Shown here: positions 21,032-28,585 of the stretch, in pieces | How the letters are laid out: each line of letters begins with the position of its first letter | How positions within the stretch are numbered: the stretch's first letter is position 1 | Source of the DNA: Caenorhabditis elegans | Lineage: Eukaryota; Nematoda; Chromadorea; Rhabditida; Rhabditidae | DNA: 64,000 nucleotides | NCBI RefSeq assembly: GCF_000002985.6 | Contig: NC_003283.11 | Location: forward strand, 744,001 to 808,000 | Direction: 5' to 3' | Program-made: the position numbers and the translations under genes | Notes under the pieces: generated by a model | The model's input: only the letters and a program-made list of their open reading frames with translations | Databases searched by the model: none | What the model was told of the DNA's origin: nothing

Positions 21032-24000
21032 ATGTCCACGCAACGTGTTGTGCAATTTGTCTGCACTCCCCTTGCAATCATTACAAATTGCACTTTAATT
21101 CTTTTCGTTCTTAAAAAATCGCCAGAAAGTCTGGGACTCTATAAATATCTGATGATTTATATTGCGGTTTATGAGCTGCTTTTCTCAACTCTCGACATAC
21201 TTCTCGCCCCAGATGCCTATTCTTACGATACAATCTTTATCATGATCACGCGAGCCGACAAACTGATTCTACCACCATGCACAAAAGAAGTGGCATCGAT
21301 GATGTTTTGTGTTCTTTTCGGAGAATCTCTTGCAGTGTTTTCCATTCATTTTGTCTACAGATACTTGGCCATAACGGGGCGAGTTTTCGAATTGCACTTA
21401 TCATTGGTTTCATTGGGGATATGGCCAGGGTACGGTAGTTGTGCTGTAGGGGTACTGTAGGATTACTGTAGTTCTGGAATAATTGACTTTCCGTTATTTG
21501 AAGGGTTTTGGGTTATTGGGGTTACATGGTCGGGGTACTGTAGTAGCACTGTAGGGGTACTGCAGGGGTACTGTAGGATGACTGTAGTTTAGGAAAAATT
21601 GACTTTTCGTGTTTAGGAAGAATATTGGTTTGGGGTTAGATTGTCGCAGTACTATAGAGGTACTGTAGGATTACTGTAGTTCTGGAATAATTATTTTTTT
21701 TGTTTTTTGAAGGGATCTTGGTTTGGGTTTAGGTAAGGGTACTGTAGTATCACTGTAGGGGTACTGTAGGGGTACTGTAGGGCTCAGATAAACTGGAGTC
21801 ACGGCAGAGCGACAGAAAATCACTTCTAATCAGCAAAAGCTAGTAAAGCCATAGTTTATCAGCAGAGAACCACTGCTAATTAGCAGGTCATTGCTAATTA
21901 GCTAAAAAGCACTGCTAATTAGCAGAAACCCACTGCTAACTAGCAGAACATTGATTATTGATTTTATTTTGTTTTTTCTTCGTCGTATTTCACATATTTC
22001 ATTTTTTTGACCTTTTTTTATTGTATTTTTTGTGTGATATGTTATCAATATGTGTTAATTGTTAATTCCAGTGTGTTTTTCAAAGATTTGTATCATTCCC
22101 GGCTAGAAACGGAGGATTATGGCCAGAAATCCAAGAACAACAGTTCGAAGAATTTTGAATTCAGCACCCCGGAGTCTTCTGATTCAAAGCGTGACAATAG
22201 TTGCTCTAGGTAAATTTTTTAAATGATTTTATTGGGACTAAATAACTACTTTCAGACCCGACGGACAATAATCATGGTTCTCACCAGCCGGGAAGCAATG
22301 GTCCATCAAATTCAAGCACCCAGGCCGATAACTTCGAGACGGAAACAACTGCAGATGAAGAACGACAAAAGGAAGATGGTGTAGAAGATGAACTCGAAGA
22401 CGAAGAAACAACAGGATTCATTGATGAAGACGGGGAAATTCGTTATCCGGTCGATGAAGTGGGAAATTACGAGATCGATCAAGAAGCTGAAACCGATGAG
22501 TCATTTTATTTGGACACTCAACGCGATTCTTCTCTATGCGACGAGCGAAGTCAACTGTGTCGTTCTCTGAGCGATCAAAATCTGAGAACAACTTTTTTCC
22601 TCATCACTACTACCAACTCGAAAGCAGCCATTTTGAGATATCTACATTTTCACAATGTTTCACAAGATAGCATTCTCAGAAAATTGCTACTGAATGACTC
22701 TCATCTAACACTTGTAGAAGTATGTAATTTATGTGCGCAGAATATCGAACTGTAGGTTTATTATAAAACTAAATTTCTGAAATATATCATTACAGATGCA
22801 AATGTGAAGATATGCAAGAGAAATGCCAACTAATTTTCGGAGATCTCAAGAAATGGCTCGAAGTTATATTGAATAGTTTTGCGAATATCATGATGAAGAC
22901 TAAAACAACTATTTTGGAAGGATATAATAGCTCCAGTCCAATAAATAAGGGTATCTTTAAAAAAAAGCTACTCAGCGAAATGGCAGATAATGAAATGTGG
23001 ATGCACTTCGAGAGTAGCTTCGACGGAATCAAAGTACATAAAAATGGAAAGTAAGTATCTTAGTTTGATGGCTCTAAAAATTTTAATTGGTTTTCAGTCA
23101 GAACATTTGGCCATATAGTTTACTCAATTTGGATCTCGAAGACGTTCATCGAGCTTCTCCCCAGGCCCTCATTTTAGCAGCGTTATTCATCGGGTTCAAA
23201 AATCCGACAACGAAAATTCATGATAGACTTACACAATGGATTCTGCTCCAAATGGACGAACATGTCTTCTTCTCAGAGGGAGTGGCCTGGAAAGCGGATC
23301 TCACGTGTGCCAATCATGACGATCCAGTGAGATGAAAATTCAGAATTTTGAAAACAAGTGTTTGGTTTCAGGCACGACGAATCGTATACAATCAGTGTGG
23401 ACTCCGATCATCAGGTTCTTGCAACTTTTGCTTAAACCAGGAAACTGAGTGCAAAATCAATGATGAGTATACAACACGTAAGCATCATGAAAACTATTAT
23501 TAAAAAAATAATCACCTCTTTATAGTACGCGAAAATCTCACCGGATCGTGCCCTTCGACTATGAACGATGGCCTTCGTCAAAGAAACCAGCATTCTCATT
23601 TCCACAAGCATGTTTTGTATATGCATCTATGCCCGGTTGACTTGTTTCATTGTTTTGAAGAAGGAATTTTAAGCAATATCAATACAGGTCACTAGTAATG
23701 CCCGAATGCTCCCGAAACGTGTTCATTTTTCAGCATTATTCTCCAAAGGGAAATGGAATTTGTTCCCGTCAAAATCGGTGGATTTTTCATCAACACCTTC
23801 GCTTCCATCTCGATTTCGTTCGTTGTCCGGCAAAGCTTCACAGTGTACTGGTTCTGAGAAAGCACTGGTAAAAAGATTCGTTCAGCTAATTTCTGCAAAG
23901 TGAACACACATTTAGATTTTCGAGTCGATAGTTGTAGCAGCTGCATTTTCCGGTGAACTTGGAGGTGTACCATCGGCTATCATTCTCAGCATTCATGGAC

Positions 24001-27000
24001 TTTATCGTCTTTGCATAGAACCCCAATCAATCACTGACGAGACTCTTCATTTGAAAGTTAGTTTTTATTGTTTTTGCTTGAAAAAAGTAGACCATTCTTT
24101 ACAGATTGAACAAATCAGCAAATCCATCGAAGTTTTAATTGTGAAACGAGCACCGGAAATGTTGAATGGGATCAAAGTACATGTATGGAAATTGTCGTCA
24201 ACTAACACCCATTACTATTTTGCAGCAAGTGTTGTACCACCTTGCAAGAATGACTGAGCTGTACGGTAGCTTATTTCCATTGTCAACTCAATGGTTCGAG
24301 TACTTCTATCACACTATTCAAAGAACTTTAGTTCCGGAAATTTACAATGGACTGGGCATGAGCATCATGAGAAAGTGAGAAAATTAGAGCACGATAGGGA
24401 GCAAGAATGTTTTTACAGAATGTCGGCTCTTCAAGAGATCAAAACCGAAGCTGCATTCCGTCTACACACAAATCACCAGTTTCGAACAGAAGCGAACTTG
24501 AAAATGTGCTATGAACTTGGATTATTAAGGCGACTCAAACGAATATCGGTTGTTCCGACCCCTCCGCAGTACCAACAGTTTTGCGAGACCGGGGATGTTT
24601 TCCTTAATGTTGTATACCACGACGGCATCAGATATTCGAATTATTGCAACAAAAAGACAGATGACTCAAATGTTACGTTTATCGAATATGCTCGCGTACG
24701 ATTTGCAAAGATTATTGGGATGCTGTTGAAGGAAAACAACACTGATCTTCGTTTTATTTTGAAGAAATACTGCAACACAAATGATCATTTGATTGACATA
24801 TCGAACAAGTTATATGAAGAGGATGTACCGCAAATGCATATTCAAAACTGGGTTGATTCAGTTTCAAAATCGAGTTTCGGAGGTCGTGTCACGTTAACAA
24901 ACACAGTTGTCGTGGTTTCCGCCGATTCCATTGTTGGACATGCAGTGGTTGTGAAGCGAAATAACAACTGTGTGGCTCTTCCATTTTCTCGCCGTATCAG
25001 TCTATCTTGACTTTGATAACCACATATAGCTTTGAATTTGTTTGTCTTTTGTCTGTCCCCCCCCCCCCCCGCTCGAAAAAATGTCTGCACCTCCCCCTTC
25101 TTTGACAAATGTTTGTCTCTACCCCTTGCTCGAAAAATGTTCTCATTATGTTCTTGAGGAATTCTTTCAGATTTTTAAAAGTTGTTTCTTTTAATATTTT
25201 CATGAATGCTTATCCGCTTTCAATTAATTTGTGTTTATTTGATGTGTTAATCTGTTCTGTTCAACCCTGCTTATTTAATCTTATTTTATTAACAGATCTA
25301 AAAATCAATTTCAGAAAAAGTCATGTCATTCCTCGAGAAACTAGTGGCAAAATACGAGCCCATTAAAGAAGAAAAACCAAAATTAGTTCCAAAGCCGACA
25401 AGAAAACGGCAACCGGAAACTACGGAAATCGTTGTGAAGACTCGCCGTATTACTCGCCGAAATGCTAAGGTTAGTGGAAGGAGCCACATAACATTAAATG
25501 TGAACCCAAAGCTAACCTATTCCTATGAGTTTTAATATTTCTGTCATTTTCAGGCACCTGTAAAAGAAGAGGAGATTGGACATCAAATCACGATCGTAGA
25601 TGACGAAGAGTTTATGGAGCAACCTGTACAGGAGCCGATTGAGATTGAAGAGGAGCAACAAGAAGAATCTCATCTGGAAATTGCTCTTCCGGAGCAACCA
25701 AATCATGAGCCAATGCAATCAAGTCCATCGTTGCCTAGAAAATCGTTCAAACCGGATATGCATCCAATTGCGAAGGTGTTTACTTCTGCTAATTTCGAGT
25801 TGCTCGGAAATAAATTAATTTCAGAAAGGCGGAAAAATCTGTATTGTAGATCTAGGACTTACATCTCACACACTCCCCACCGAACAAACTCCAGGATTCT
25901 TGGTAAGTTTTTTTTTCCAAAAATCTGGCATGATCAAAATTGTTGACTTTTAGAAAAGACTCGGAGAGAACGTTGGAGGATCAATTGACTATAGTTATGA
26001 ATCGATTGACGAGTTGATCCGCACTGCTCCGGATGCTTGGTCTAAAGCTTCAATGGGTGCAATTCGAGGTGTTATGCTCATGGTCAGTTTTAGTTACTAT
26101 CTTGAATTTGCAATTAATATTGGAGAAAATTTCAGCAGGAACTGGTTACTGAGCGATCAATGCACCCGAAAAGTAAACCAATGGAGAAGAATCGTTTACT
26201 TGTATGTTTATAAGAATGGAACGATTTTGAGCATTTGAAAATGTTATTTACAGGGTGAAGAAATGGCAAAATTGAACCCTAACGATTTTCTGAACCACAA
26301 ACTGCTGGAAGTTTCGAGTTTGGATCAAACTGGTATACCAAGAACATAAATAAAAACCGCCCCCAAGAACATTCTATTTCAGTGTTTATCAACGTCAATC
26401 TCGTGTTTTCGGCGCTGAGCATTCAACATGGCTCGGTTAGATCAATTGTCAATGCTATGTCAAATCACTGGATTGACTACGTGAGCGATCAAATATTACG
26501 TTCTATTTTTGACTATTTAACATTTCAGCTGATTCCGAGAGAGCAACAAGGATCCTTCACGACAAGCAAAAAGACGGAGCCTCTTACTTTCTTCCCAGGA
26601 GACTTGACAAATTGGCCAGCCGGTTAGTTTATGATTTACATGGGCGAGCCACATAAAAATCGTTTTCAGCTCTTCTCGCTGCGGCAATCAAGTTGGACAA
26701 CGACCAGGTGGACGTTACTCGCCTTCCAAGTGTGGTCAATATGCTGTTCAAGCATCATATCAAAGTCAGATTGTAGGTTTCTTGTTATTTACTTTAAAAA
26801 GCCAGCGAATAGAATTTTTCTTTAACTTGAAAAACTATGTTTTCACAAATGTCTTTTTGCAGCGATCATGCCCGTGGTTTGTATCGAACAAAACACGACG
26901 GCCAGAATCCACCAAAAATTGTGCTGCCAAAGCGTCCCATCATCGATTGCACACAATTCTACAAGAGCAGCGAGGATATCGATGAGGAGCAAGTTCCATC

Positions 27001-28585
27001 AACTTCGAACTTTCAATCATCTTCGAACTCTCTATCAACTTCGAAATCTGCTGGAAGGGAAAATATCCCAGACTCCCCATAAATTCACTAGTTCTCCTGT
27101 TTTCTGATACTTTCGAAACTTGTTTTTTTGTTTTTTTTTCCATTTTTCGTTAAATGTTTTTTTTCTGTTGTTTTTTCATTTTGTTTCATTTTCATAATAA
27201 ATCGTGTTATTTTTTATGGTTTTATAAAAGTTTAATCCAATATGAAAGCAAAACTAGCTAGCAAGAAAGCATAACTACGTAGCAAAACATCACCGCTAAT
27301 CAGCGGAAAAGCACAATTACTGCGGTTGACTAAGCCGTGACATAAATGCTAATTAGCAGTGATTTTCTATCGCTCTGCCGTGACTCCAGTCTATCTGAGG
27401 GGTACTGTAGGGGTACTGTAAGGGTACTGTAGTTTAGGAAAAATTGACTTTTCGTGTTTAGGAAGAATATTGGCTTGGGGTTAGACTGTCGCAGTACTGT
27501 AGAGGTAGTGTAGGATTACTGTAGTCTTGGAATATCTGACTTTTCGTTTTTTGAGAGGATATTGGTTTGGATTTAGTGGGGTTAGATGGTCGCAGTACTG
27601 TAAGGGTACTGTAGGATTACTATAGTTTAGAAAAAATTCACTGAAGTTTAAAGGAAAAGTCGTGGTGAGACCTATCATGGCTAAAGCCATTCGTTTTGGC
27701 GGGAATTCAAATTTTCTGACTATGAGAAAAAATTTTGGCAAGAAATTCAATTTCTGAGAAAATAAAACTTTCTAGAAAAATTTTGAAAATTGTGGAATTA
27801 ATATAATAAAAATTTTAAAACGTTAACCTTTTTCAGCCATTCATTTCTTAAAACAAAATCACTCCGAAAAACGTTGATCTGGCTCTTGATTCCTGTTATC
27901 TACGGTTTCCTCTGGGCAGTCAATTTATATTGTACACTATGGGTCAACACGGATACTGAACAGATATTACAGGGGTGAGTAAAATGAAATGCTTGTTGTA
28001 CTCTGTTGAACTTCTCAGGAATGGGTATTTACGCGAGAATAAGTTAAACATATCCGACGTAACATATATTGGGCCCAACTATTGGAAACTTGATGAAAAT
28101 AGAAATGAAGTTATAAATTGGAGAACAATGTTGGGAATGTCTATTGCATCGACACTGATCTCGATTTCCTTCGCAATGATTGTCATTTTTGCAACTTTAA
28201 GCTACAAAGAGGTCTCCAAGCTAACCGAGCTGACTTCCCACTCCGAAAAATTCCGTTCAATTCAACTGCAACTTTTAAATTCTTTGGTGTTGCAATCACT
28301 TGTCCCGGCGTTTTTCATACAGTTGCCATCGTTCGTCCTATTTCTGGCGCCTTTTTTTCATTGTGGAAGGCCAGTGTTTGGCGAGATAATTGGTGTGACG
28401 GTTGCTCTATACCCAGTCTTGGACTCACTTCCAACAATTTTAGTGATCAAGGCTTTCCGTGAAGCAATATTTCGTGAGTAAAAGTTGCCAGCCAAATAAG
28501 TTGAGTGTATTTTCCAGATTGTTGCCCATTCACTAATAAAAATGCTACACTTCCCACATCCGTAGCACTGGTTACTATTCAATAA
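21032..28585 (+). CDS. str-family 7TM chemoreceptor, 335 aa, first intron 6.5 kb containing a transposon
   Basis: Exons: 21032-21378, 27837-27974, 28019-28473 and 28518-28585, total 1008 nt in frame. Exon 1 holds [20 protein letters not shown] and [11 protein letters not shown]. Exon 2 continues at exactly the expected residue ([20 protein letters not shown]). Exon 3 gives [20 protein letters not shown] and [20 protein letters not shown]. Exon 4 supplies the tail [18 protein letters not shown]. The exon 1 donor is GG|GCGAGT, a GC-AG intron, the only donor that restores the frame. GC donors exist in C. elegans but are rare. The intron encloses a complete two-gene DNA transposon and GGTACTGTAG repeats. 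Coding sequence shows no decay, so either the gene is still spliced or the insertion is recent. The two halves could easily be annotated as separate genes by error. Confidence 0.75.
21431..21782 (+). repeat. GGTACTGTAG minisatellite, left of transposon
   Basis: Higher-order tandem array: runs of GGGGTACTGTAGGATTACTG spaced by a ~70 bp spacer containing AAAATTGACTTTTCGTGTTT and TTGGTTTGGGGTTAGATTGTC. At least three ~115 bp units. The same array continues right of the transposon, so the transposon landed inside it. Confidence 0.8.
22119..25010 (+). CDS. Transposase-like protein of the CACTA-like element, 808 aa
   Basis: Eleven exons (22119-22209, 22256-22751, 22796-23050, 23098-23326, 23372-23477, 23526-23687, 23734-23867, 23916-24056, 24105-24176, 24226-24374, 24419-25010), total 2427 nt. 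The basic start [16 protein letters not shown] is followed by a very acidic region (residues ~60-130, [18 protein letters not shown]), a Cys cluster ([18 protein letters not shown]), then [20 protein letters not shown]. Next is a region with [20 protein letters not shown] and the zinc-ribbon-like [15 protein letters not shown], then [19 protein letters not shown]. That order (WP..L.NL, a metal-binding CxFCL, then a D/H-rich MH..DLFH..EEG segment) is what metazoan CACTA/Transposase_21-type proteins show. Catalytic DDE residues cannot be fixed by eye. The start was chosen by phase from exon 2. A viral-type or Chapaev relation is the alternative. Confidence 0.6.
25057..25070 (+). repeat. Poly-C tract, 14 C, between the two transposon genes
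   Basis: Fourteen consecutive C (poly-G on the minus strand) in the 3' flank of the transposase gene. Long poly-G runs are G-quadruplex-prone deletion sites in C. elegans lacking DOG-1/FANCJ (established). Confidence 0.9.
25323..27082 (+). CDS. Second protein of the CACTA-like element, 411 aa (putative DNA-binding accessory)
   Basis: Ten exons (25323-25469, 25554-25775, 25825-25902, 25954-26082, 26136-26201, 26254-26332, 26383-26480, 26529-26622, 26670-26772, 26863-27082), total 1236 nt. The N-terminus is Lys/Arg-rich ([29 protein letters not shown]), then an acidic Glu/Gln-rich stretch ([18 protein letters not shown]), a folded-looking middle ([40 protein letters not shown]) and a Ser-rich tail. 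No known domain recognised. Its place downstream of the transposase inside the same terminal repeats suggests the accessory protein that binds the subterminal CTGCTAATTAGCAG repeats, by analogy to TnpA (inference). The ATG follows a TTTCAG by six bases, so it may be trans-spliced as the second cistron. Confidence 0.5.
27400..27640 (+). repeat. GGTACTGTAG minisatellite, right of transposon
   Basis: Continuation of the array at 21431-21782, with GGGGTACTGTAAGGGTACTG and the same spacer (GTGTTTAGGAAGAATATTGG). Followed at 27690-27790 by a few GGCGGGAATTCAAATTTTCT units before exon 2 of the receptor. Confidence 0.8.

What the first reader, a model, noticed from the sequence alone, without database searches (positions are those of the whole stretch)
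21783..27399. Complete two-gene CACTA-like transposon hidden in a chemoreceptor intron
Seen: matched ~50 bp terminal inverted repeats, GGG on both sides, palindromic CTGCTAATTAGCAG subterminal repeats, and two same-direction multi-exon genes whose exons sum to 2427 and 1236 nt without a stop. Known: CACTA elements have 3-bp target duplications, subterminal binding repeats and, in En/Spm, a transposase plus a repeat-binding partner. Inference: this is a nematode element with the same division of labour and possibly still active. The second protein has no domain I recognise and is the novel part.
Basis: partly seen in the sequence, partly recalled or inferred. Interest (0 to 1): 0.85.

Follow-up and report, generated by a model that had tools for sequence, protein, structure and literature searches.

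The report
Intact MIRAGE1 transposon in worm genome
The element is a full-length copy of MIRAGE1, an already described C. elegans "jumping gene" that makes two proteins; the part that looks new is that its second protein is related to an ordinary single-copy worm gene.

Summary
The window is C. elegans chromosome V. At 21783-27399 lies a 5,617-bp element with ~53-bp terminal inverted repeats, subterminal TGCTAATTAGCA palindromes and two intact multi-exon genes (810 and 411 aa), inside an intron of a Str-type chemoreceptor gene. The target duplication is 2 bp, not 3: 6 of 6 full-length copies share 2 bp, and "GGG" is GG plus a chance G. The termini read CTCAG, not CACTA.

The first protein matches Pfam DUF1258, published as the Mirage group of transposases, and carries the DDE/CxxC/HxxxxH pattern of the CACTA-Mirage-Chapaev lineage. 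Six full-length copies and two ORFs agree with the published description of MIRAGE1. So this is a known element, a relative of CACTA rather than a member.

What may be new concerns ORF2. Spliced, it is 30% identical over 223 aa to a single-copy C. elegans gene (III:13,337,050-13,339,760), whose four introns in the shared core match ORF2 introns in position and phase. The C-terminal part of ORF2 shows purifying selection against a sister family. My best inference, not shown, is a subterminal-repeat-binding partner of the transposase. Structure prediction failed.

The parts
21783..27399 (+). Whole element, MIRAGE1-type, 5,617 bp (V:765783-771399)
   Evidence: six copies aligned end to end
21781..21782 (.). 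2-bp target-site duplication GG, left
27400..27401 (.). 2-bp target-site duplication GG, right
21783..21835 (+). left terminal inverted repeat, 53 bp, begins CTCAG
   Evidence: 92% to the right end
27347..27399 (-). right terminal inverted repeat, 53 bp
21824..21945 (+). left subterminal array of TGCTAATTAGCA palindromes (starts 21824, 21874, 21892, 21913, 21934)
27294..27358 (+). right subterminal palindromes (CGCTAATCAGCG at element offset 5512, TGCTAATTAGCA at 27347)
22119..25010 (+). ORF1, DUF1258 (Mirage) transposase, 11 exons, 810 aa
   Evidence: model; Pfam PF06869 E 3.2e-19; identical to public protein P0001
25323..27082 (+). ORF2, 10 exons (25323-25469, 25554-25775, 25825-25902, 25954-26082, 26136-26201, 26254-26332, 26383-26480, 26529-26622, 26670-26772, 26863-27082), 411 aa, no known domain
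   Evidence: no family hit; related to the chrIII gene
21032..21429 (+). upstream exon of the host Str-type chemoreceptor gene
27837..27976 (+). downstream exon of the host chemoreceptor gene

Best explanation
The feature is a full-length, structurally intact copy of the known C. elegans DNA transposon MIRAGE1 (Mirage branch of the CACTA-Mirage-Chapaev lineage). Shown by sequence: ends, 2-bp duplication, six near-identical copies, two open genes, DUF1258 transposase. Inferred: ORF1 is the RNase H-like DDE recombinase (D272, D355, E589) that cuts at the CTCAG ends and inserts with a 2-bp stagger. ORF2 is a nematode accessory protein that most likely binds the subterminal TGCTAATTAGCA array and helps bring the ends together or controls transcription. 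ORF2 shares an intron-bearing ancestor with a single-copy host gene on chromosome III, so one was derived from the other, by capture into the element or by domestication out of it. The window copy landed in the intron of a Str-family receptor gene, within a GGGGTACTGTA repeat array.
For: Copies and ends. DUF1258 E 3.2e-19; DUF1258 equals the Mirage group, close to Transposase_21/CACTA (passages of PMC3985635). Motif spacing D355-19-C374xxC377 and H564xxxxH569-20-E589, as in the published C(2)C and H(3-4)H signature of the lineage (passages of PMC12730594). MIRAGE1 described as autonomous, two ORFs, six full-length of 69 Dfam annotations, both ORFs up-regulated in heterochromatin mutants (passages of PMC5395297). 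ORF2 kinship to the chrIII gene: 68/223 identical, E 4e-27 in a two-sequence comparison, 4 of 4 introns of the shared core in the same column and phase. Selection: against the X:16.23 Mb sister element pN/pS 0.235 (95% 0.204-0.271) for ORF1 over 774 codons and 0.394 (0.293-0.521) for ORF2 over 143 codons. Palindromes at element offsets 42, 92, 110, 131 and 152 in both families.
Against: The MIRAGE1 consensus itself was not available, so identity rests on matching description. CTCAG departs from the 5'-CA..TG-3' ends usual for the lineage (PMC12730594 passage). For ORF2: a search with ORF2 alone found nothing at E <= 0.001 in 5.8 billion proteins; the six-frame genome search gave the chrIII gene only E 0.09 and 0.19, and the reverse search with the chrIII protein did not list ORF2 at E <= 10. 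ORF2 has three core introns that the chrIII gene lacks. The selection test covers only ORF2 exons 7-10; the other six exons have no counterpart in the sister copy, and synonymous change is near saturation. The two elements are homologous, so shared palindrome offsets partly reflect descent. No fold evidence.
Confidence: 0.93

Rival explanations
1. A true CACTA (En/Spm) element of nematodes with a TNPD-like transposase and a TNPA-like partner.
For: Two genes, subterminal repeats, transposase related to Transposase_21 (PMC3985635 passages). Some elements assigned to CACTA are reported with a 2-bp duplication (PMC6004678 passage).
Against: 2-bp duplication in 6 of 6 full-length copies and CTCAG ends; Pfam reports DUF1258 and no Transposase_21 match at E <= 1; CACTA elements are described with CACTA/TAGTG ends and a 3-bp duplication (PMC4158355 passage).
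Confidence: 0.04
2. ORF2 is not a transposition partner but a regulator or anti-silencing factor, or a captured host gene carried as a passenger.
For: It has an intron-sharing relative that stands alone in the genome; no known domain.
Against: A homologue of ORF2 sits beside ORF1 in a second Mirage family that differs at roughly 29% of aligned bases, and its C-terminal part is under purifying selection, so it is not a recent passenger. This does not exclude a regulatory role.
Confidence: 0.35
3. Host gene structure or segmental duplication rather than a mobile element.
For: The element is intronic and in the sense of the host gene.
Against: Six copies with identical ends, different flanks and 2-bp duplications on chromosomes II, IV and V.
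Confidence: 0.01

Closest known systems
MIRAGE1 (C. elegans; PMC5395297, passages)
   Same: C. elegans, autonomous, two ORFs, six full-length copies; transposase in the Mirage group.
   Different: No difference found. The published consensus could not be aligned here; ORF2's kinship to a host gene was not mentioned in the passages seen.
CACTA / En-Spm
   Same: Related transposase lineage, subterminal repeats, two genes.
   Different: 2-bp rather than 3-bp duplication, CTCAG ends, DUF1258 rather than Transposase_21, and an ORF2 with no detectable known relative (TNPA itself was not compared).
Chapaev (DUF1280) and Transib/RAG1
   Same: Shared CxxC and HxxxxH between the second acidic residue and the final E.
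   Different: Different Pfam family; no DUF1280 match for ORF1 at E <= 1.
C. elegans chrIII gene, 321 aa, labelled 'Phosphoprotein' (P0003)
   Same: 30% identity to ORF2 over 223 aa; four core introns at the same position and phase.
   Different: Single copy, no inverted repeat or palindrome found in the 8-kb locus with up to 2 mismatches, no DUF1258 on chromosome III in the family search, different N-terminus.

Membership tests
Mirage / MIRAGE1 | DUF1258 (Mirage-group) transposase | tested here: met
   PF06869 E 3.2e-19, 69.9 bits against cut-off 33.1; DUF1258 = Mirage (PMC3985635 passage)
Mirage / MIRAGE1 | 2-bp target duplication (recalled for Mirage, not taken from a call) | tested here: met
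   6 of 6 full-length copies; also the sister element at X:16.23 Mb, TA
Mirage / MIRAGE1 | Two ORFs and six full-length copies in C. elegans | tested here: met
   against passages of PMC5395297
Mirage / MIRAGE1 | End-to-end match to the MIRAGE1 consensus | not testable with these tools
   no Dfam or Repbase consensus held
CACTA-Mirage-Chapaev lineage | D, D, E with C(2)C and H(3-4)H between second D and E | tested here: met
   D272, D355, C374/C377, H564/H569, E589. In the C. remanei relative D272, both Cs, both Hs and E589 are kept; D355 is not, in what may be a faulty gene model
CACTA / En-Spm | CACTA..TAGTG termini | tested here: not met
   CTCAG..CTGAG
CACTA / En-Spm | 3-bp target duplication | tested here: not met
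   2 bp in 6 of 6; 3 bp possible in 1 of 6
CACTA / En-Spm | Second protein that binds subterminal repeats | not testable with these tools
   array present; binding needs an experiment

The most novel reading that the evidence does not exclude
Mirage transposons of Caenorhabditis carry a lineage-specific accessory protein (ORF2) that recognises the subterminal palindrome array and is needed for transposition. The host keeps a single-copy, intron-sharing relative on chromosome III, either the source of ORF2 or a domesticated copy that could compete for the same sites and restrain the element.
Probability: 0.25. Interest if true: 0.6.

Novelty: already known. Interest (0 to 1): 0.3.

Why it matters
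MIRAGE1 is a main target of heterochromatin and piRNA silencing in C. elegans, and its expression contributes to sterility of silencing mutants (passages of PMC5395297). The element is known, so the find itself is ordinary. The ORF2 link to an endogenous gene gives a concrete, testable candidate for either the origin of a transposon accessory protein or a transposon-derived host gene, in a model animal where both can be deleted.

Tried and rejected
Rejected: CACTA membership (ends and duplication); a 3-bp duplication; the idea that the element is unique to this locus. Structure of ORF1 from two sequences gave mean pLDDT 33.1, pTM 0.25; structure of the chrIII protein alone gave 33.7, pTM 0.22. 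Both are unusable, so no fold search was run. PDB sequence searches gave nothing significant: one hit at E 1.1 for ORF2, four at E 0.073-2 for the three-row alignment. NCBIfam gave nothing of note. An ORF2-like exon pair at X:1,699,228-1,699,509 (E 8e-4) was first thought to belong to a DUF1258 element; it lies outside that element's end at X:1,698,342. No ORF2 relative was found inside the X-linked DUF1258 loci by tblastn. A weak ORF1 match near the chrIII gene (E 0.73) was judged chance. The genome search with ORF1 as a protein did not complete (seven attempts), so the list of ORF1 relatives rests on the DUF1258 family search and DNA searches. A first dN/dS script timed out and was rewritten. 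The database hit P0003 is by construction, because the query alignment contained the same gene; P0004 in the same call is a read-through of this window's own DNA. Papers: only passages were seen, of 12 papers; no paper was read in full. No paper linking ORF2 to a host gene was seen in the listings (25 of 100 listed), which cover open-licence PMC only.
Full report
Where it is. The window is G000 contig 5, 744001-808000, in a 100,286,401-base genome of 7 contigs. The chromosome lengths are those of C. elegans N2 (recalled), and a protein labelled C. elegans, P0003, lies on a contig of 13,783,801 bases, the length of contig 3 here. The element is therefore V:765783-771399.

The element. Its two ends match each other over 53 bases at 92%. 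A 60-base and a 118-base query from the left end each find 23 matches in the genome. The inner 4.7 kb finds six full-length copies, on II (2), IV (2) and V (2), and shorter or more distant pieces elsewhere. All six end at the same base. Their flanks share 2 bp: TG, GG, TA, AA, AT, TA; only the window copy can be stretched to 3 bp. Of five shorter copies examined at both ends, two keep both termini and both show a 2-bp duplication (AG, AT); the other three have lost bases at one terminus. In the window the element interrupts a GGGGTACTGTA repeat array, and removing it with one copy of a 2-bp duplication restores the unit, while a 3-bp duplication leaves one G short. The six copies differ by 0-11 substitutions between pairs, plus small length changes; ORF1 is open in 6 of 6, and ORF2 is open in 6 of 6, at 1236 nt in two copies and 1245 nt in four. 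This is a recently mobile family.

The transposase. ORF1 has 11 exons and 810 aa and is identical to a public predicted protein. Pfam gives DUF1258 at E 3.2e-19 and nothing else at E <= 1. Passages of PMC3985635 state that DUF1258 corresponds to the Mirage group and is close to Transposase_21, i.e. CACTA. The acidic and metal-binding residues D272, D355, C374, C377, H564, H569 and E589 have the order expected for the CACTA-Mirage-Chapaev lineage (signature from passages of PMC12730594). The spacings D-19-C and H-20-E equal those I recall for RAG1. A C. remanei relative (39% identical over 98% of the searched region) keeps these residues except D355; its gene model may be faulty there.

Which element. 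Passages of PMC5395297 describe MIRAGE1 as an autonomous C. elegans DNA transposon with two ORFs, six full-length copies among 69 Dfam annotations, both ORFs up-regulated in heterochromatin mutants, and partial rescue of fertility by its knock-down. Passages of PMC5850821 list MIRAGE1 among DNA transposon families with the most insertions among wild strains, and passages of PMC7930041 report its RNA in wild-type germlines at 25 degrees. The agreement in number of full-length copies, gene number and transposase family makes identity with MIRAGE1 very likely; the consensus itself was not available to align.

ORF2. It has 10 exons and 411 aa, a basic then acidic N-terminus, and no Pfam or NCBIfam family above cut-off. 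Alone it found no relative at E <= 0.001 among 5.8 billion proteins. In the C. elegans genome it weakly matched two collinear stretches on chromosome III (E 0.09 and 0.19). Splicing that gene gave a 321-aa protein with intact splice sites at III:13,337,050-13,339,760, minus strand, identical to the annotated protein P0003, named 'Phosphoprotein'. The two spliced proteins align at 68/223 identities, E 4e-27. The chrIII gene has six introns: the four within the shared core fall in the same alignment column and phase as ORF2 introns, and the two upstream of it do not. ORF2 has three further core introns. By rough reckoning, a chance match of four introns at this density is of the order of 1 in 10^8. 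The chrIII gene found only itself in the genome apart from one E 0.33 hit, and the 8-kb locus holds no copy of the inverted repeat core or palindrome with up to 2 mismatches. Common descent is well supported; direction is open.

A sister family. X:16,231,746-16,236,012 holds a related 4,267-bp element with ends CTCAGACAGG..CCTGTCTGAG, a TA duplication, palindromes at both ends, an ORF1 counterpart without stop codons in the aligned codons, and the last four exons of ORF2; the first six ORF2 exons have no match there. Against it, pN/pS is 0.235 (0.204-0.271) over 774 ORF1 codons and 0.394 (0.293-0.521) over 143 ORF2 codons, with synonymous change near saturation. So the C-terminal part of ORF2 was kept by selection. 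Palindromes with up to 3 mismatches start at offsets 42, 92, 110, 131 and 152 from the left end in both elements; MIRAGE1 has a further one at 118 and the sister one at 71 (no shuffle control for that count). The 21-bp steps are about two helical turns. Common descent explains part of this, but the interiors retain 2 matches each in 5,217 and 3,767 bases, so the sites are terminal features.

How it most likely works. Shown: anatomy, copies, duplication, coding potential. From published work: transcription of both ORFs when silencing fails. Inferred: ORF1 catalyses cut-and-paste at CTCAG with a 2-bp stagger; ORF2 binds the palindrome array as a partner or regulator. AlphaFold models were unusable, so the ORF2 fold stays unknown.

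Verdict. The family name needs correcting from CACTA to Mirage, and the element is already in the literature. The lead worth following is the intron-sharing relative of ORF2 on chromosome III.

Noticed in passing
L043 (III:13337050-13339760, minus): Single-copy C. elegans gene of unknown function, labelled 'Phosphoprotein', related to MIRAGE1 ORF2 with four shared core introns.
   Followed up: partly
L021 (X:16231746-16236012) and L022 (III:6630161-6630958): A second Mirage family, about 71% identical to MIRAGE1, with a 2-bp TA duplication at the X copy; both copies lack the first part of ORF2 by internal deletion.
   Followed up: partly
X:16514402-16522778 and X:1691141-1698342 (L045, L046, L048, L052): A further DUF1258 family of about 7-8 kb with CACAG ends; duplication looks like CT in one copy and ACT in the other, read by eye. 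No ORF2 relative found inside.
   Followed up: partly
L047 (X:1699228-1699509, minus): A decayed ORF2-like exon pair next to, but outside, the DUF1258 element at X:1.69 Mb.
   Followed up: partly
window 25310-25323: A TTCAG acceptor 8 bases before the ORF2 start, 312 bases after the ORF1 stop region, as in trans-spliced downstream genes of worm operons; read by eye, not tested.
   Followed up: no
window 25554-25775 (ORF2 exon 2): In-frame 9-base length difference between copies: two copies 1236 nt, four copies 1245 nt.
   Followed up: yes
window 26994-27047: Three head-to-tail 18-base repeats in the last ORF2 exon.
   Followed up: no
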